A stretch of 49,859 nt of DNA from the NCBI RefSeq assembly GCF_003003795.1, contig NZ_PVWK01000015.1, forward strand, positions 1 to 49,859, written 5' to 3'. How positions within the stretch are numbered: position 1 is the first letter of the stretch; the number at the start of each line of letters is the position of its first letter. Made by a program: the position numbers and the translations under genes. Under the pieces are notes generated by a model. The model saw nothing but the letters and a program-made list of their open reading frames with translations. It did no database searches and was not told where the DNA came from. This document shows, in pieces, positions 6,262 to 24,535 of the stretch. Source of the stretch: Stenomitos frigidus ULC18. Its GTDB lineage: Bacteria; Cyanobacteriota; Cyanobacteriia; Leptolyngbyales; Leptolyngbyaceae.

Positions 6262-7137
6262 ATGAAAGCATGGCAGACGATCGCTAAAATTCCTCCTGAT
6301 GCATTAGTCGAAAGTAGGCTGCAACTGCATTATGCCATTCAGTTTATTGCAGCTACAGGCACGGCATTGGCAGAACCACTCCCAGACTATAGCCATACCA
6401 GTTTGGCATGGCATCCGGTTTTAGAAGTGTTTGTTGGCTCTGCCATTCAAGCACCACAGCCGTTCCAAGTGGCACTTGATCCAGTGAGACTCAAATTAAT
6501 CCTCTTGAATCAGCAGAGCGAAACGATCGCTGCTTTACCATTGCCTGGAAAAACAATGGCAGCAGGGTTGAACTGGCTTCAACAAGAGCTTTCTCAACTG
6601 GGTGTCGATGGCAACAAAATTGCGTTTCTGGATTATCCCCCTGATGACTTTCCTGATCATCCCCTTGCTTACGGTGCTTCCTTTGATATCCATCAGGCAT
6701 TGGCGTTGGGTGAACTGGCAAATTACTACGCCAATACCGCTCCGCTCTTTGAGGCAATCATTGCTACGACCGAGGATGCGACTGCTACCCGTATTTGGCC
6801 GCATCACTTTGATATGGCAACGCTCATCATGCTTCCCGGTATTAAAAACGGCAGCCCACTCACAGTCGGAGTGGGCTTATCGCCTGGAGATACCAACTAC
6901 AACGAACCGTATTGGTATGTATCTCCCTACCCGTATCCAGATACAGCCAGCCTTCCTGCCCTCGATCGTGATGGCTTTTGGCACACTCAGCATTGGGTGG
7001 GGGCTGTACTGCCTGCTTCTCGACTCGCTGAGTCTATCAGTGCTGAAGCCCAACAGCCACAGGTTGAGGCATTCTTACAGGCTGCATTGAGAACATCAAT
7101 TGCCCTCCTGAAGTCCGAATCGCCTGCTGAGGTTTGA
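6262..7137 (+). CDS. Conserved hypothetical protein (291 aa), partner of the DUF1622 protein
   Basis: I do not recognise a named domain. The protein is cytoplasmic-looking, with no signal peptide or membrane span. Visible blocks are SRLQLHYAIQFIAATGTALA near the N-terminus, WPHHFDMATLI near residue 185 and a glycine/proline/aromatic-rich stretch around NEPYWYVSPYPYP near residue 220, which looks like a binding-site loop. His, Asp and Trp in WPHHFD could be functional. The start ATG at 6262 follows GGAGTC. A partial paralogue at 19962-20329 (minus) matches the first ~125 residues with roughly three quarters identity by eye. In both places it follows a DUF1622 gene, which suggests a shared role. 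Confidence 0.7.
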   Translation: MKAWQTIAKIPPDALVESRLQLHYAIQFIAATGTALAEPLPDYSHTSLAWHPVLEVFVGSAIQAPQPFQVALDPVRLKLILLNQQSETIAALPLPGKTMAAGLNWLQQELSQLGVDGNKIAFLDYPPDDFPDHPLAYGASFDIHQALALGELANYYANTAPLFEAIIATTEDATATRIWPHHFDMATLIMLPGIKNGSPLTVGVGLSPGDTNYNEPYWYVSPYPYPDTASLPALDRDGFWHTQHWVGAVLPASRLAESISAEAQQPQVEAFLQAALRTSIALLKSESPAEV

Positions 7138-17191: not shown

Positions 17192-17360
17192 TTCTGCTCT
17201 TTCTATGCCCGCTGCGGCATTTCACTCACAATTGCACCGTTGCATTGCCGTTCATCAAATTCTAAGCTTGCCCTCAGTCTTTCTACTGATTTATGAGTCG
17301 ATACTTCAGTTAGCAAATGACTCTGCTAACCGAATCCCTGAGCATGGAGTACTCCCCGCT

Positions 17361-18320
17361 ATGGCAACTACAACCGCAGAAGAGCAACGATTAGAAGCAG
17401 CGGTCGCCCACACCGCCCACTGGCGCAGATGGGGACCCTACGTGAGCGATCGCCAGTGGGGAACGGTACGCGAAGACTATAGCCCTTATGGTTCCGCCTG
17501 GGACTACTTCACGCATGAACAGGCACGTTCGCGGGCGTACCGCTGGGGTGAAGATGGCTTATTGGGTATTTCCGATAACCATCAACGACTCTGTTTTGCG
17601 ATCGCCCTTTGGAATGGGGAAGATCCCATCTTGAAAGAACGCCTGTTTGGGCTGACAGGCAATGAAGGCAATCATGGAGAGGATGTTAAAGAATACTATT
17701 TTTATCTAGACAATACTCCAACACATTCCTATATGAAAGCGCTTTATAAGTACCCACATAAAGCCTTTCCCTATGAGCAACTGGTAGCAGAAAATCGTCG
17801 CCGCGATCGTCATCAACCAGAGTTTGAATTGCTTGATACTGGAGTGCTTGATGAAAATCGCTATTTCGATGTGTTTGTGGAATATGCCAAGCGATCGGCT
17901 GAGGACATGCTGATCCAAATTACCGTCATCAATCGCGGGTCAGAAGCAAAAACGCTGCATTTGCTACCAACCCTCTGGTTCCGCAATACCTGGTCGTGGA
18001 ATAGTGAACTAGAGAAGCCAACCTTACAAGCACTTCATTCTGATGATGATGGCACGCTGATTGAAGCCTTTCATCCTACGTTAGGGAAACGATGGTTTTA
18101 TGCTCAAGGGAACGCAGACGTTCTCTTTACAGAAAATGAGACCAATCATGAGCGCCTCTTTGGACTGCCAAATGCTTCTCCCTATGTGAAAGATGGCATT
18201 AATGATTACGTTGTCAAGGGTTGTAAGGGGGCAGTGAACCCCAACCAAATCGGTACAAAGGCTGCTGCACATTACATCTTCACACTTTCCCCTGGAGAGA
18301 CAAGGGCGTGGTTCAAATGA
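17361..18320 (+). pseudogene. N-terminal fragment of an MGH1-type glucosidase, truncated by an IS
   Basis: 319 aa remain. Seen: [64 protein letters not shown] and [13 protein letters not shown]. These are the N-terminal blocks of a large bacterial glucosidase family related to GH63, whose full members are around 850-900 aa with the catalytic barrel further on. The reading frame runs into the inverted repeat of the IS at 18304 and stops at 18320, so the catalytic half is missing. The ATG at 17361 follows GGAG at 11 nt; an upstream open frame begins at 17205 but lacks family similarity. The missing 3' part is not found beyond the IS, so sequence was lost. Confidence 0.75.
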
Positions 18321-19961
18321 AGGTAACAGATTGGAAGAACTCGGTGTAATGTGAAGGGTCGTCTCCTTAGCCCTAAGTTGAACCCATCGCATGAGTCTCA
18401 GCCGATCAATCGCAGCCAGCCTATCCCCTGATACCCGCCAGAAATTGGCGATTGAGGTCTTGGCAAAATCGCAGCCCGTTAGCCAACTTGCGGCTGCACA
18501 TCAAGTCAGTCGCAAGTTTCTGTACGAGCAAGGTCAAAAAGCAAAGACGGCAATGGATGCGACCTTTGAGCGGACATCCAGCGACGACGACGTGCTATTC
18601 CATCTGCCCGTGACGAAAACTTGGTTGTCTCAGCTCATCCTGGGATTGGTGCTGATCTGCCATAGTTCCTATCGCGGAGTCGTCGAACTGTTGCGCGATC
18701 TATTTGACGTATCCATCAGCGTTGGAACGATCCACAATCGCCTTCAGTCCGCTGCGGCAACGGCATCTGAGATCAATCAAGGACAAGATTTGTCTGGAAT
18801 CCAGGTCGGACTTCACGACGAAAGCTTCCAAGGGTCTCAACCGGTGTTGGCTGGAGTTGATGCCGCCTCAACTTACTGCTACTTACTTCAAGGTGTGGAA
18901 CACCGCGATGGAGAGACTTGGGGCTGGCATTTGCTCGATGTGATGGAGCAAGGATTTCAGCCCGATTTCACGATTGCAGATGCTGGGGCAGGATTGAGAG
19001 CCGGTCAGAAAGCCGTTCTGCCTGATATTCCTTGTCATGGTGACGTCTTTCATCTTCAGCAACAGTTTGAAACCGTTGTTAACATCCTGAACCGACAAGC
19101 CGCTGGAGCTACGTCTAAACGATTAAAACTTGAGCAGAAGCTTGCCCAAGCTCAACTTAAGGGTCAGAACACTCGTTCTCTCCAAGGCAAGTTGAACGTC
19201 GTGCATCAACTTGAGCAGAAGCTCGTCCGGTTGGCGACTGAGGTCAAAACCTTGTTGCAGTGGATGTCGCATGATGTCCTTGAACTCGCGGGTCCACTGT
19301 TGGCAGTCCGCCAGGAACTGTTTGACTTCATCGTCACTGAACTCCAACAGCGGGAGTGTAAAGCGCATCCTCAGCTTCAGACGCTGTGCAAATCCTTACA
19401 CCATCAGCGGGATCAAGTACTCGCGTTTGCAGGTCTGCTCGACCAAAAGCTGGCGAAGATGGCGCTGGGCTTTGACGTGCCGTTGCAAACCGTGCGCGAT
19501 GTTTGCTTGCTCAATCGTAAATCGCCCACCTCGAATCCTTACTGGGAGCGTTGGAATCAATTACACGCTCAACTCTCGGGGAAATTCCACGCGGTGATGG
19601 AGGCAGTGAGTGCAGCGCTCAAACAAATCCCCAGAGCCAGTTCTCTGGTCGAAAATCTCAATTCTCGCTTACGCGACTACTTTTTCCTGCGTCGAACGTT
19701 GGGTAAACCTTATTTGGGATTGCTCCAATTTTTCCTCAACCACCGCTGTTTCATCCGCAGTGCAGTCCCGGAGCGAGTCGGCAAAAGTCCGAAGCAGTTG
19801 ATGACGAGTGCGAGTCATCCTCACTGGCTGGAGCTGTTAGGGTTCCAGATCTTCCGACAAGCTTAACTCGACCAGCCCATGCGATTCAGAGCATCCTCGA
19901 AATGAGGGTCTAATTTGTGGTGCCACTGCTACCTTAAAACTGCCATTTTTGAACCATGCCC
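18304..19961 (+). mobile_element. Insertion sequence of about 1.66 kb with imperfect terminal inverted repeats
   Basis: GGGCGTGGTTCAAA at 18304-18317 is matched in inverted orientation by TTTGAACCATGCCC at 19948-19961 (13 of 14 positions). The single transposase gene fills the interior. The left flank is glycosidase coding sequence; the right flank is a different gene, cut exactly at the repeat. No target duplication is visible (gagacaa against agaaaca), which fits a deletion or recombination next to the IS after insertion. The exact ends are uncertain by a few bases because G residues are shared with the flank. I cannot name the IS family. Confidence 0.7.
18391..19866 (+). CDS. DDE-type transposase of the IS
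   Basis: 491 aa, apparently full length. An N-terminal helix-turn-helix region (residues ~15-50: LAIEVLAKSQPVSQLAAAHQ) is followed by a catalytic core. Candidate catalytic residues are Asp143 in GLHDES or Asp157 in AGVDAAS, Asp197 in IADAGAG and Glu421 in SSLVENLNSRLRDYF, with a long helical insertion (about residues 225-345) between the second Asp and the Glu. A run DVFHLQQQF follows the second Asp as in ISL3/IS66-like cores, but the family is not certain. There is no frameshift, so the protein could be active. No strong ribosome site precedes the ATG at 18391. Confidence 0.8.
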   Translation: MSLSRSIAASLSPDTRQKLAIEVLAKSQPVSQLAAAHQVSRKFLYEQGQKAKTAMDATFERTSSDDDVLFHLPVTKTWLSQLILGLVLICHSSYRGVVELLRDLFDVSISVGTIHNRLQSAAATASEINQGQDLSGIQVGLHDESFQGSQPVLAGVDAASTYCYLLQGVEHRDGETWGWHLLDVMEQGFQPDFTIADAGAGLRAGQKAVLPDIPCHGDVFHLQQQFETVVNILNRQAAGATSKRLKLEQKLAQAQLKGQNTRSLQGKLNVVHQLEQKLVRLATEVKTLLQWMSHDVLELAGPLLAVRQELFDFIVTELQQRECKAHPQLQTLCKSLHHQRDQVLAFAGLLDQKLAKMALGFDVPLQTVRDVCLLNRKSPTSNPYWERWNQLHAQLSGKFHAVMEAVSAALKQIPRASSLVENLNSRLRDYFFLRRTLGKPYLGLLQFFLNHRCFIRSAVPERVGKSPKQLMTSASHPHWLELLGFQIFRQA

Positions 19962-20329
19962 AGAAACACAAGTTTGCTGGCATCCGCACCCAGGTGAGAA
20001 AGCTCTTGCTGCAGCCAGTGAAGCCCCTCCACCATTGTTTTTCCAGCCAACGGTAAGGTGATGGTCGTTTCACTCTGCTGATCCAACAGCATTAATGTGA
20101 GACTGACTGGATCAAGTGCCACTTGAAAGGGTGTTGTTGCTCGAATCGCAGCACCAACAAAGACGTCTAAACCCGAATGCCATGCCAAACTGGTGTGGCT
20201 ATAGTCTGGGAGTGCTTCTGCCAAGGCTGCACCCGTTGCGGCAAGCAATTGAATGGCATAATGCAGTTGCAGCCTACTTTCTACTAACTCGTGAGGAGAG
20301 ATTTTAGCGATTGCCTGCCATGTGTTCAT
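19962..20329 (-). pseudogene. 5' fragment of a paralogue of the 291-aa hypothetical gene
   Basis: Begins MNTWQAIAKISPHELVESRL and matches the protein at 6262-7137 over its first ~122 residues (SRLQLHYAIQ.IAATG.ALAE.LPDYSHTSLAWH, FQVALDPV, NWLQQELS.LG). The match ends at KLVFL, where the IS inverted repeat begins; the few further codons to the stop at 19934 are IS sequence. The C-terminal half, including the WPHHFD block, is missing, so the copy is dead. The divergence (about one residue in four) shows an old duplication or a second acquisition, not a recent tandem copy. Confidence 0.8.
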
Positions 20330-20734: not shown

Positions 20735-22533
20735 ATGAAGCCTCTAAAAATTGCCCTCTGGAGTGAGTTGAGCGATCGCAAACCCATCCCGGTTCTGGTT
20801 GAAGGCATCGACCTGGTGATTATCCGTTGGGATGAGCAGGTGTCTGTGCTGTACGGACGCTGCAAACATCGCGGCGCGCTCATGGCGGATGGCGTGGTCG
20901 AGGGCGACAATATCATCTGCGGCGTTCACGGGTGGGACTATCGCCTGGCCAGTGGAGTGAGCGCTTACAACAACAGCGAAGCGCTGGACAAGTTTCAGTC
21001 CTGGGTTGAAGCTGATGGACTGTATGTGGATGTGGATGAAATCCTTGCCTGGAAGCATCAGCATCCCCAGCCCTATGATCGCACCGCCTATCAGGGAGCC
21101 TACGCCGACCTGCACGGCACGATCGAGGAACCCAGCACCCAGTACATTCATCAACTTGCCAGGGAGGGATTGAGCAAAGTTGGGCATCATGGCCCGGTGG
21201 CGGCGATGGGCGTTCCGGCACCGACCTTGCCGCAGTGGGATGACTTACAGTTTGTCACCGCCCAACTGGCTCGCCTGCCTCAGCTCGATGATGTCAGTGT
21301 TGGCACAGAACTGGTGATTGGTCCCAGGGCGAAGCAACCGCTGAAACTGGACATCCCCCTCTTTGTGTCGGACATGAGCTTTGGGGCGCTATCAGAGGAA
21401 GCAAAAGTTGCTCTGGCAAAAGGCGCAGAGCTAGCAGGCACGGGCATTTGTTCTGGTGAAGGGGGGATGTTGCCAGAGGAACAGGCAGCAAATGGTCGTT
21501 ATTTCTATGAACTGGCTTCGGCACTAGGGCAAACGCACACGTTTCTTAACACGCTAGGGGTAACACAATCTATACCTACGCAACGCTAAAGCCGTCAATT
21601 TTGTTCGCAATAAGCTCTGCTTGATGAGACCATTTGCAATAAAGTAGCCAGAATTGGCGCTTATTGAGATATGTACTTTTGTATGCGTTCGCCCTAGCTT
21701 CGGCACGGTTTGGCTTTTCGCTGGACAAGCTAATGCAAGTGCAAGCGTTTCATTTCAAGTGTGGTCAGGGTGCCAAGACGGGCACGGGCGGACATCTCCC
21801 TGGGAACAAAGTGAAAGGTCGCATTGCGGCAGTGCGGGAGTTGCCGGAAGGACAAGCGGCCGTGTCGCCACCGCGCTTTCCCGATTGGGACTCGGTGACA
21901 GACTTTAAGAAATTTGCGGCGACCGTGCGCGATACCACTGGTGGGATTCCGATCGGGGTGAAGCTTTCGGCTCAACACATCGAATTCGACATTGATGCGG
22001 CGCTGGAAATCGGGGTGGATTACATCATCCTGGACGGACGCGGCGGTGGCACGGGGGCGGCTCCCCTGCTATTCCGCAACAACATTTCGGTGCCCACCAT
22101 TCCAGCTCTCGCCCGTGCCCGTCGTCATCTAGACAAGCGTGGTGCCAAGGACGTGACGCTGATTGTGACCGGAGGGCTACGCACCCCTGCGGATTTTGCC
22201 AAAGCACTGGCACTGGGAGCCGATGGCGTTGCCCTCTCGAATGCCGCAATTCAGGCGATCGGGTGTTTGGGCATGCGGGCGTGTCATACAGATAATTGTC
22301 CAGTGGGGATTGCCACGCAGCAAGAGAGTTTGCGATCGCGCCTGATCATTGACGAAGCGGCTCAGCGCCTCGAGCGCTTTTTCCGTGCCTCGACTGAACT
22401 GATGCAAGTCCTTGCCCGTGCCTGTGGACATACTCACCTCAACCAGTTCTGCGCCGATGACCTCACCACCTGGCATCGAGAGATGGCGTACCTGTCTGGT
22501 GTTTCCTACGCCGGAGTCACGCCGTTGTCGTAG
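20735..22533 (+). pseudogene. Rieske-glutamate synthase-like FMN enzyme, interrupted by a MITE
   Basis: Frame 1 (20735-21514) starts at an ATG five bases after TAGGAG. Residues 1-105 form a Rieske domain with CKH (C43, H45) and CGVH (C62, H65). The FMN-binding glutamate-synthase barrel starts near residue 120 (LFVSDMSFGALSEEAK, ICSGEGGMLPEEQA). After ELASA the frame enters a 172-bp insert and stops. Beyond it RFGFSLDKL, QGAKTGTGGHLPGNK, GGRGGGTGAAP and a 3Fe-4S-type CLGMRACHTDNCPVG cluster complete the protein to 22533. Removing the insert plus one 10-bp target copy restores ELASARFGF in frame. The intact protein would be about 540 aa: a GltB-like synthase core with its own Rieske electron carrier and no glutaminase domain. 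As it stands the gene is broken. Confidence 0.88.
21525..21696. mobile_element. 172-bp MITE with terminal inverted repeats and 10-bp target duplication
   Basis: The ends TAGGGCAAACGCACAC (21525-21540) and the reverse complement of 21681-21696 (TAGGGCGAACGCATAC) agree at 14 of 16 positions. The element is flanked by direct copies of GCTTCGGCAC at 21515-21524 and 21697-21706; one base at each side could belong to either, so the duplication is 8-10 bp. The interior has no gene. Ends of this kind with an 8-10 bp duplication would fit an ISAs1-like transposase acting in trans, but no such transposase is in this window. Confidence 0.88.
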
Positions 22534-22579
22534 AACGTTGTCGTAGAAATTGTCAGCCTACTCGCGCGAGGATCTCCCC

Positions 22580-24535
22580 ATGACCGCACCCTCCACTCAA
22601 TGGTTTCGAGTTGCAGCTTTGGATGAACTCCCCGAAGGACGGGTGAAAACCGTCGTTGCCGGACATAAAAGTCTGGCGCTGACCCACTATCACGATCAGT
22701 ATGGAGCGCTCGATAACCGCTGCCCCCATCAAGGTGGTCCGCTCGGCGAAGGCGCGATTGAAAACGGACTGTTGCGCTGTCCCTGGCATGGCTGGGACTA
22801 TTGTCCGCTCACTGGAAAGCCGCCTGGAAACCTGGCGGTGGATGATGCCCTCGAAACCTTTCCAGTGGAAGTGCGGACCGATGGCATCTACGTTGAACTT
22901 CCTGACGAAGCGCCTCACCTTCGCACCATTACCGACGTGATGGCAGAGACCATGGTGAACTGGGGCATTACCCATGTGTTTGGCATGGTCGGTCACTCTA
23001 ACTTGGGCTTAGCCGATGCCTTGCGACGACAGGAACAGCAGGGAAAATTGACCTTTATCGGCATTCGCCACGAGGGCGCGGGTGCCTTTGCTGCGTCTGC
23101 CTATGCCAAGCTCACAGGTAAGCCTGCTGCCTGCCTCACGATCGCTGGTCCCGGTGCCACCAATCTGCTCACGGGTCTGTGGGATGCCAAGGTCGATCGC
23201 GCTCCAATTCTGGCGCTCACGGGTCAGGTGAACTCTCAGGTACTGGGCACTGGCAACTTCCAGGAGTGCGATCTAGCCGCTGCCTTCAGCGGCGTTGCTG
23301 CTTGGAGTAGCACCGTTCTCAGCCACAGCCAGCATGCCGAGTTGATGACGCTTGCCATCAAACACGCCCTGCTGGAACGCGATGTCTCGCACCTGATCTT
23401 CCCGGATGAGATCCAAACCCAGCCTGCCGCAGAAAAGGCCAAAGCCTCCAATCCGACCGGTCGCATCACCCCGCTGCAAATCGCGCCACCCCCGGATTCT
23501 CTGGCGAGTGCTGTGGAGCACCTCAAGCAAGCCAAGCGTCCGGTGATCATCGTCGGCCATGGGGCGCGGTTCAATATGCCTGCGGTCATTGCACTGGCAG
23601 AACGGCTCCATGCCCCCGTTTTGACTACCTTTAAGGGCAAAGGGCAGATTTCCGATCGCCATCCCCTCGGTTGTGGCGTGCTGGGTCGCAGTGGCACGCC
23701 GATCGCCAGTTGGTTTATGAACGAAGCCGACCTGCTCTTAGTCTTTGGTGCCTCGTTCTCAAACCATACCGGCATCTACCCCGGTAAACCGATCATCCAG
23801 GTTGATTTTGATCCATTGGCACTGGGTAAATTCCATCCCGTTACGGTGCCCGTCTGGGGCGAAATTAGCATCGTCGTAGAGCAATTGAAGGTGGCACTCG
23901 AAGGTAAAACCCAAACAACCGATCAACGCGCCGAGGTGGCGGAGCGCTGGGCCCTTTGGCGTGCCGAAAAGCAGCGTCGGGAAGCCGATGACCGGGGCAA
24001 TGGCGTTAACTCCGCCAGCATCTTCGCCGCCATGACGCGCCAGATCCCAGGCAATGCGGTCATTTCTGTAGATGTAGGCAACAACACCTACTCCTTTGGT
24101 CGCTATTTTGAGTGCGAAGCCCAGTCTGTGTTGATGTCTGGCTATCTGGGGTCGATCGGGTTTGGGTTTCCAGGTGCAATGGGAGCCTGGGCTGCCGCAG
24201 GGCACGAGCGCCCGATCGTCTCAGTCTCCGGTGACGGCGGCTTTGGTCAGTACATGGGCGACTTCAACACGGCTGTGAAGTATGACATGAACATCGCCCA
24301 CATTCTGCTCAACAACAGCCAACTCGGTAAAATTAGCAAAGAGCAGCGGGCAGGCGAATGGGAGGTGTGGCAAACATCACTGCACAATCCAAACTTCTCG
24401 AACTATGCTGAGATTTGCGGTGGCTTTGGCCTTCGAGTGACACAAAAGGCTGCTCTCGATGACGCGATCGCTCAGGCTCTCGCCTACAAGGGTCCCGTGA
24501 TCGTCGAAATCATCGCTGACCCAGAACTAATTTAA
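22580..24535 (+). CDS. Rieske-ThDP enzyme fusion (pyruvate oxidase-like)
   Basis: 651 aa. Residues 1-107 are a Rieske 2Fe-2S domain with CPH (C48, H50) and CPWH (C67, H70). From about 110 on it is a thiamine-diphosphate enzyme of the pyruvate oxidase/acetolactate synthase type: GMVGHSNLGLADAL, catalytic Glu in IGIRHEGAGAFAA (E165), middle domain VIIVGHGARF, and the ThDP/Mg motif GDGGFGQYMGDF near D552 ending in ILLNNSQLG. ATG at 22580 follows GAGGA by seven bases; a start 30 nt upstream is possible but adds unconserved residues. It begins 46 nt after the Rieske-synthase gene, same strand, so they likely form an operon. It would decarboxylate a 2-oxo acid and could hand electrons to its own Rieske centre; the acceptor and substrate are unknown. 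Confidence 0.88.
   Translation: MTAPSTQWFRVAALDELPEGRVKTVVAGHKSLALTHYHDQYGALDNRCPHQGGPLGEGAIENGLLRCPWHGWDYCPLTGKPPGNLAVDDALETFPVEVRTDGIYVELPDEAPHLRTITDVMAETMVNWGITHVFGMVGHSNLGLADALRRQEQQGKLTFIGIRHEGAGAFAASAYAKLTGKPAACLTIAGPGATNLLTGLWDAKVDRAPILALTGQVNSQVLGTGNFQECDLAAAFSGVAAWSSTVLSHSQHAELMTLAIKHALLERDVSHLIFPDEIQTQPAAEKAKASNPTGRITPLQIAPPPDSLASAVEHLKQAKRPVIIVGHGARFNMPAVIALAERLHAPVLTTFKGKGQISDRHPLGCGVLGRSGTPIASWFMNEADLLLVFGASFSNHTGIYPGKPIIQVDFDPLALGKFHPVTVPVWGEISIVVEQLKVALEGKTQTTDQRAEVAERWALWRAEKQRREADDRGNGVNSASIFAAMTRQIPGNAVISVDVGNNTYSFGRYFECEAQSVLMSGYLGSIGFGFPGAMGAWAAAGHERPIVSVSGDGGFGQYMGDFNTAVKYDMNIAHILLNNSQLGKISKEQRAGEWEVWQTSLHNPNFSNYAEICGGFGLRVTQKAALDDAIAQALAYKGPVIVEIIADPELI

What the first reader, a model, noticed from the sequence alone, without database searches (positions are those of the whole stretch)
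20735..24535. Two adjacent enzymes each fused to its own Rieske domain
A GltB-like FMN synthase core and a pyruvate-oxidase-like ThDP enzyme lie in tandem (46 nt apart), and both begin with a complete Rieske 2Fe-2S domain (C-x-H and C-x2-H present in each). Glutamate-synthase barrels and ThDP oxidases normally take electrons through separate partners. A matched pair with built-in Rieske centres suggests an uncharacterised two-enzyme redox pathway, perhaps linked amination and oxidative decarboxylation of a 2-oxo acid.
Basis: partly seen in the sequence, partly recalled or inferred. Interest (0 to 1): 0.7.

Follow-up and report, generated by a model that had tools for sequence, protein, structure and literature searches.

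The report
Rieske-fused enzyme pair, one copy broken
Two neighbouring enzyme genes that each carry their own iron-sulfur electron carrier belong to a widespread redox module that seems undescribed, but in the genome studied here the first of the two genes has been split, apparently recently, by a small jumping element.

Summary
Both Rieske fusions are real and 46 nt apart, but the first gene is broken: a 172-bp MITE (21525-21696; 10-bp target duplications; two identical copies elsewhere in the genome) splits the GltB-like gene into 20735-21589 and 21697-22533, in different frames. The Rieske-ThDP gene (22580-24535) is whole. The pairing is not chance. Of the 80 closest Rieske-ThDP loci from one scan, 38 have the GltB-like gene in the flank, 25 within 200 nt, in eight phyla; 62 of 80 genomes hold it somewhere. 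Of 299 genomes of one phylum, 5 have Rieske-ThDP; all 5 have Rieske-GltB, four at 2.5 kb. A third Rieske protein, with a MsrQ-like heme-b membrane domain, joins in many genomes. The GltB-like core can carry Rieske, tandem CDGSH (published type 5 CISD) or a rubredoxin-like domain. In six genomes an FMN-reductase-like gene flanks the ThDP gene and no close GltB-like gene was found. Most likely the ThDP enzyme oxidises a 2-oxo acid and passes electrons through Rieske centres to an FMN partner; substrates and direction are inferred. My literature searches found no description of the pair.

The parts
20735..21589 (+). N-terminal part of the broken GltB-like gene: Rieske domain (aa 5-75), linker and start of the FMN/3Fe-4S glutamate-synthase core; the last codons before the stop lie in the inserted element
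   Evidence: PF00355 48.1 bits and PF01645 49.1 bits; stop inside the insert
21525..21696 (.). 172-bp MITE interrupting the GltB-like gene
   Evidence: terminal inverted repeats, 10-bp target duplication, two 100% identical copies at other sites with their own 10-bp duplications
21515..21524 (.). left copy of the 10-bp target-site duplication
21697..21706 (.). right copy of the 10-bp target-site duplication
21697..22533 (+). C-terminal part of the broken GltB-like gene: rest of the FMN barrel and the C-x5-C-x4-C [3Fe-4S] cysteines
   Evidence: PF01645 245.1 bits, profile positions 122-368
22580..24535 (+). intact Rieske-ThDP fusion (651 aa): Rieske (aa 7-81), then pyruvate-oxidase-like TPP_enzyme N, M and C domains
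   Evidence: Pfam; NCBIfam best hit PRK08611 pyruvate oxidase 414 bits, below its 742 cut-off; AlphaFold pLDDT 89.6, pTM 0.89; Foldseek best 3eya, E. coli pyruvate oxidase
19934..20329 (-). truncated member (131 aa) of a ~290-aa family without a Pfam or NCBIfam match that recurs near Rieske-ThDP genes; its link to the module here is weak because the genome holds four other members
   Evidence: BLASTP E 3e-17 to the L086 member; model match 122 bits over positions 5-127 of 285

Best explanation
The two genes are the core of a redox module that appears to move horizontally. The Rieske-ThDP enzyme is a pyruvate-oxidase-like enzyme that decarboxylates and oxidises a 2-oxo acid and passes the electrons one at a time to its own Rieske cluster. 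The Rieske-GltB-like enzyme is a glutaminase-free glutamate-synthase core (FMN plus [3Fe-4S]) that exchanges electrons through its own Rieske cluster, most likely taking them and using reduced FMN on a 2-oxo or imino acid. A third Rieske protein with a MsrQ-like heme-b membrane domain, present in many genomes, would link the same pool to the membrane. Shown here from sequence: the fusions, the ligands, the conserved pairing, the operons, the exchange of carrier domains, the broken copy. Inferred: electron flow between the enzymes, its direction, the substrates, and FAD in the ThDP enzyme. In this genome the GltB-like half is inactivated, so at most the ThDP enzyme still works.
For: Pairing: GltB-like gene in the flank of 38 of 80 kept loci, 25 of the 38 within 200 nt (20 GltB first, 4 ThDP first, 1 divergent); of the other 42 genomes 24 have it unlinked, at 61-75% identity. 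Of 299 genomes in the phylum of G443, ThDP is found in 5, all among the 12 with Rieske-type GltB, 4 of them about 2.5 kb apart; Fisher p 4e-8, or 1e-6 without the centre genome G443. In all four close pairs the heme-b/Rieske gene lies between the two; antiporter beside GltB in G512 and G564, not in G648. Heme-b/Rieske protein in 23 of 48 ThDP genomes. Distances of the two proteins over 40 linked pairs correlate, Mantel r 0.70, 0 of 2000 permutations. Rieske ligands and ThDP motifs present in 40 of 40 aligned ThDP rows (window and 39 of the 80 loci), [3Fe-4S] cysteines in 30 of 30 aligned GltB rows. Carrier swap: 26 CDGSH rows form one clade, SH-aLRT 99 (quick tree); rubredoxin-like in L026 (below the Pfam cut-off). 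Alternative FMN partner: FMN-reductase-like gene beside ThDP in 7 of 86 loci; the 6 whole genomes searched of these have no close GltB. GltB-like model best with glutamate synthase 1ea0: Z 31.9, rmsd 2.8, 357 aligned.
Against: No experiment. 18 of 80 ThDP genomes have no close GltB-like gene, though many are MAGs of unknown completeness; 7 of 12 Rieske-GltB genomes have no ThDP. 25 of 48 ThDP genomes, the window's own among them, have no heme-b/Rieske protein at E 1e-30. Oxidases, synthases and lyases match the ThDP model almost equally (Z 42.5 to 38.6 in 50 rows), so oxidation is not settled. Genome counts and the Mantel test are not corrected for shared descent. The phylum draws scored only 3 or 4 candidates per genome.
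Confidence: 0.4

Rival explanations
1. Tandem oxidation: the GltB-like enzyme works in reverse and deaminates an amino acid to a 2-oxo acid; the ThDP enzyme then oxidatively decarboxylates that 2-oxo acid; both discharge electrons into Rieske centres and the heme-b/Rieske membrane protein.
For: Two consecutive steps with one carrier type; heme-b/Rieske membrane protein between the genes in four genomes. Flavocytochrome b2, an FMN barrel with an N-terminal one-electron carrier, is in the fold lists; that it oxidises its substrate and sends electrons out is recalled.
Against: Where no GltB-like gene was found, an FMN-reductase-like gene can stand beside the ThDP gene, which suggests no deaminase role; glutamate synthases run reductively (PMC8097209 section 6.1).
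Confidence: 0.25
2. Co-regulated but electronically independent enzymes of a redox or salt-stress island: each Rieske domain is an electron entry from a common reductase, or a redox sensor, and no electrons pass between the two enzymes.
For: On three haloarchaeal plasmids the pair is 1.4 to 16.7 kb apart among genes annotated as mercury(II) reductase, quinol monooxygenase and, variously, dihydrolipoyl dehydrogenase, peroxiredoxin, pirin, rhodanese and DsrE proteins; each gene occurs alone in many genomes.
Against: Distance of 200 nt or less in 25 of 80 loci, in either order, and a different FMN protein beside ThDP where GltB was not found.
Confidence: 0.25
3. A separate question, about this genome only: the finding is a decaying remnant. 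The GltB-like gene is dead and the ThDP gene may follow, so the pair has no function here. This can hold together with any of the other explanations.
For: MITE insertion with frame change; no heme-b/Rieske protein in G000 at E 1e-30; a truncated gene at 19934-20329 beside a transposase ORF; none of 6 congeners has the ThDP gene.
Against: The element's three copies are identical, so the insertion looks recent; both halves and the whole ThDP gene are open and well conserved (79% and 87% identity to L031; 84% to L027).
Confidence: 0.5

Closest known systems
Glutamate synthase alpha subunit and ferredoxin-dependent glutamate synthase (GltB, PF01645)
   Same: FMN barrel; C-x5-C-x4-C [3Fe-4S] cysteines; Q283, K286 and R306 of L031 invariant in 30 rows, which I recall as 2-oxoglutarate ligands in GltS; an invariant AMG motif near GltS Met479, judged only from the offset of the structural ranges
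   Different: No glutaminase domain, no C-terminal beta-helix, 536 instead of about 1500 aa, own N-terminal Rieske domain
Type 5 CISD: tandem CDGSH fused to a glutamate synthase FMN domain (PMC3174974, PMC5859297; passages seen)
   Same: Same core at about 60-69% identity to L031 with an N-terminal 2Fe-2S carrier
   Different: Carrier is CDGSH, not Rieske; the CDGSH rows form one clade; the passages that I saw mention no ThDP gene
Pyruvate oxidase / pyruvate:quinone oxidoreductase (PoxB 3eya, PQO 9ev3-9ev6)
   Same: Whole ThDP part, about 27% identity to 3eya by Foldseek; RHE motif, whose Glu I recall as catalytic
   Different: N-terminal Rieske domain; ends where PoxB has a further C-terminal tail; below the NCBIfam equivalog cut-offs
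Flavocytochrome b2
   Same: FMN barrel with an N-terminal one-electron carrier
   Different: Carrier is a heme domain and the substrate lactate (recalled); no [3Fe-4S]
MsrQ heme-binding subunit
   Same: Ferric-reductase-like membrane domain of the third protein (Pfam Ferric_reduct; NCBIfam MsrQ 37 bits, below its 130 cut-off)
   Different: Fused to a C-terminal Rieske domain and encoded with the pair

Membership tests
Rieske [2Fe-2S] domain | two Cys and two His ligands in C-x-H...C-x2-H spacing | tested here: met
   both window domains; 40 of 40 aligned ThDP rows; 29 of 30 aligned GltB rows, the other (L071) having CDGSH
Glutamate synthase (GltB) | FMN barrel core (PF01645) | tested here: met
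Glutamate synthase (GltB) | [3Fe-4S] cysteines C-x5-C-x4-C | tested here: met
   30 of 30 rows
Glutamate synthase (GltB) | N-terminal glutaminase domain and C-terminal beta-helix | tested here: not met
   intact relative L031 is 536 aa; Pfam finds Rieske, the core and FMN-barrel relatives only; residues 210-510 align to GltS 855-1161
Type 5 CISD | tandem CDGSH N-terminal to the GltS FMN domain | tested here: not met
   Rieske instead
Pyruvate oxidase / PQO | three TPP_enzyme domains with RHE and GDG...N motifs | tested here: met
Pyruvate oxidase / PQO | score above a pyruvate-oxidase equivalog cut-off | tested here: not met
   best 414 bits against 742
Pyruvate oxidase / PQO | FAD bound and substrate oxidised | not testable with these tools
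   fold rows of oxidases, synthases and lyases nearly tied
MITE | short element without a gene, terminal inverted repeats, target duplications, several copies | tested here: met
   172 bp, three full copies each with its own 10-bp duplication

The most novel reading that the evidence does not exclude
An unrecognised three-Rieske electron-transfer system, spread over bacteria and haloarchaea: a 2-oxo-acid dehydrogenase of ThDP type, a glutaminase-free FMN/[3Fe-4S] glutamate-synthase-like enzyme and a heme-b membrane protein, each with its own Rieske domain, form a wire that couples 2-oxo-acid oxidation to amino-acid chemistry and the membrane, in which the carrier domain (Rieske, CDGSH, rubredoxin-like) and the FMN partner can be exchanged.
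Probability: 0.35. Interest if true: 0.75.

Novelty: new variant of a known kind. Interest (0 to 1): 0.58.

Why it matters
Rieske centres are best known from respiratory complexes, oxygenases and small ferredoxins. A conserved operon in which a ThDP enzyme, a glutamate-synthase core and a heme-b membrane protein all carry their own would be a new route for 2-oxo-acid electrons. It also gives the type 5 CISD proteins, whose function the 2011 paper calls yet to be understood for CISDs in general, a possible context: their core is a close relative of the Rieske type, and two of the 26 CDGSH rows in my tree (L071, L128) come from genomes that also hold the Rieske-ThDP gene. Database names such as 'glutamate synthase-related protein' and 'thiamine pyrophosphate-binding protein' hide the module.

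Tried and rejected
Reading gene 1 as one intact enzyme: rejected. A plain sequencing error as cause of the break: unlikely, because the interruption is a whole element with target duplication and identical copies elsewhere. A spare close copy in the genome: not found; the other PF01645 matches are two full-length GltB (open frames of 1553 and 1561 aa), one 478-aa GltB-like frame and two weak matches. The ~290-aa family (19 of 86 loci) as a firm further component: weakened, because the own genome holds five members. L102's GltB hit (32% identity) and the two matches in G454 (45 and 40%) were not counted as the same family. Literature: no held paper has Rieske, 'glutamate synthase-related' and thiamine pyrophosphate together, none has Rieske, ferric reductase and pyruvate oxidase together; 'glutamate synthase-related protein' gave one paper, seen as a listing. 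Searches found 31 and 101 papers with at least three of the terms, of which I saw 12 listed each; some searches listed 6, 5 and 6. None of the listings pointed to the pair. Read: PMC3174974 and PMC5859297 (passages), PMC8097209 (passages; part 1 of section 6.1). Coordinates of the models were not available, so cluster-to-flavin distances could not be measured; the structure matches cover the catalytic parts (residues 154-528 and 112-651), and the Rieske parts were not searched alone.
Full report
What is in the window. Pfam finds a Rieske domain and the start of the glutamate-synthase core in the first open frame (20735-21589), the rest of that core in a second (21697-22533), and Rieske plus the three TPP_enzyme domains in the third (22580-24535). 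The Cys and His ligands are present in both Rieske domains.

The first gene is broken. Its two parts lie in different frames, and between them is a 172-bp element at 21525-21696 with imperfect terminal inverted repeats and a perfect 10-bp target duplication. The same 172 bp occur with 100% identity on contigs C76 and C105, each with a different 10-bp duplication; 23 bases of one end also occur within 232 bases of the start of contigs C78, C88 and C111. Intact relatives run through this site. The likeliest cause is a recent MITE transposition. The genome holds no other close copy.

Is the pair real? I aligned the ThDP fusion with six relatives and scanned one genome per species for 84,980 species. 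Of these 80 loci, 38 hold the GltB-like gene in the fetched flank of up to 10 kb: 25 within 200 nt (20 GltB first, 4 ThDP first, 1 divergent), 9 at 0.8-1.5 kb and 4 at 2.9-4.1 kb. By record title the 38 come from Cyanobacteriota, Acidobacteriota, Planctomycetota, Pseudomonadota, Bacteroidota, Gemmatimonadota, Myxococcota and Nitrospirota, plus one uncultured bacterium. Many flanks are short; of 51 loci with at least 3 kb on both sides, 26 have it. In the whole genomes of the other 42 loci plus G032, 24 of 43 have a close GltB-like gene (61-75% identity) elsewhere, one has only distant matches (45 and 40%), 18 have none. So 62 of 80 genomes hold both, and 18 of 80, or 19 of 81 with G032, do not. 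Many of these are MAGs of unknown completeness.

A second sample: 299 genomes of the phylum of G443, which by the title of L063 is an alphaproteobacterium. The GltB-like core is in 38 at E 1e-100. By query coverage 12 are of Rieske type (10 full length, 2 partial), 24 start after the Rieske domain and 2 are undetermined (G625, with a stop, and G737). Of the 24, 19 were fetched and all 19 carry CDGSH motifs. Rieske-ThDP was found at E 1e-150 in 5 of 299, all 5 among the 12, none among the other 287. In four the genes are about 2.5 kb apart, in G443, the centre of the draw, 45 kb. Fisher p is 4e-8, or 1e-6 without G443; these genomes are not independent lineages, and only up to 4 candidates per genome were scored. 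Seven of the 12 have no ThDP gene.

The larger module. In all four close pairs a heme-b membrane protein with a C-terminal Rieske domain lies between the two genes; on its L029 relative Pfam gives Ferric_reduct and Rieske and NCBIfam a MsrQ match below cut-off. In G512 and G564 the order is Na+/H+ antiporter, GltB-like, heme-b/Rieske, a protein without a family, ThDP, with small ORFs between; in G648 the antiporter is not beside GltB. The heme-b/Rieske protein is in 23 of 48 genomes that carry the ThDP gene, but not in the window's own. In the 86 loci first compared (80 plus 6), the heme-b/Rieske protein or the next gene of its cluster is in 15, a ~290-aa family without Pfam or NCBIfam match in 19, an FMN-reductase-like protein in 7 and the antiporter in 6. 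The FMN-reductase-like gene is near the ThDP gene in four cyanobacterial loci (L008, L028, L032, L033) and three actinobacterial ones (L023, L067, L090). The six whole genomes searched of these have no close GltB-like gene; the L023 plasmid was judged from its flank only. An FMN protein therefore seems to take the place of the GltB-like enzyme.

Exchange of carriers. The same core carries CDGSH domains in Vibrio and Photobacterium plasmids, in the 19 fetched genomes above and in three genomes of the window's own class, and a rubredoxin-like domain, below the Pfam cut-off, in Monoglobus. A quick tree of 95 core sequences puts all 26 CDGSH rows on one side of a branch (SH-aLRT 99), beside 64 Rieske rows. 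Rooted at the midpoint, which falls on the very long rubredoxin branch, the CDGSH clade is nested among Rieske types, so that a single replacement of Rieske by CDGSH is suggested; the root is unsure. The CDGSH fusion is the published type 5 CISD (PMC3174974); its Glu_synthase form in cyanobacteria and proteobacteria was noted before (PMC5859297). Two CDGSH rows, L071 and L128, come from genomes that also have the Rieske-ThDP gene.

Anatomy. The GltB-like model (from L031, mean pLDDT 82.3) matches glutamate synthase 1ea0 with Z 31.9, rmsd 2.8, 357 aligned; the next fold group starts at Z 26.2, rmsd 2.7, 290 aligned. The [3Fe-4S] cysteines are in 30 of 30 rows and Q283, K286 and R306 are invariant; that these bind 2-oxoglutarate in GltS is recalled. 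Glutaminase and beta-helix domains are absent. The ThDP model (pLDDT 89.6, pTM 0.89) is closest to pyruvate oxidase by Foldseek, but by Z oxidases, synthases and lyases are nearly tied (42.5 to 38.6). It ends three residues after the alignment with residue 529 of the 572-residue PoxB chain.

History. The ThDP gene is in 2 of 42 genomes of the window's order, itself included, and in none of 6 congeners; in a phylum draw of 386 only the window's own genome had it at E 1e-120. GC is 58.8% at 22001-24000 against 45-55% in the other 2-kb blocks. ThDP and GltB distances over 40 linked pairs correlate with r 0.70 (0 of 2000 permutations), which shared organism history may partly explain. Horizontal spread is the simplest reading, not proven.

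Verdict. Function is inferred: I rate a shared Rieske-level electron circuit with the ThDP enzyme as source at 0.4.

Noticed in passing
17205-20329: A transposase ORF (18391-19866; weak ISH6-family match, E 5e-4) stands between ORF 17205-18320 and the truncated gene at 19934-20329. Stretches of both flanking genes match contig C15 at 79%, about 4 kb apart there, which suggests a transposon-associated rearrangement here; whether ORF 17205-18320 is truncated was not tested.
   Followed up: partly
6262-7134: A full-length second member of the ~290-aa family without a Pfam or NCBIfam match lies in the window; five members in the genome in all.
   Followed up: partly
L026:7377-8801: Monoglobus plasmid gene in which the same FMN/3Fe-4S core follows a rubredoxin-like domain.
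   Followed up: partly
L019, L020, L021: Three haloarchaeal plasmids carry both genes among mercury(II) reductase, quinol-monooxygenase and other redox genes, which looks like a mobile redox-stress island.
   Followed up: no
G000 contigs C78, C88, C111 (first 232 bases): The first 23 bases of the MITE recur near contig starts, suggesting longer related elements that broke the assembly and may include the source transposon.
   Followed up: no
L152 (G625): A GltB-like gene with an in-frame TAG, matched only from residue 107 of the query; possibly another decayed copy.
   Followed up: no
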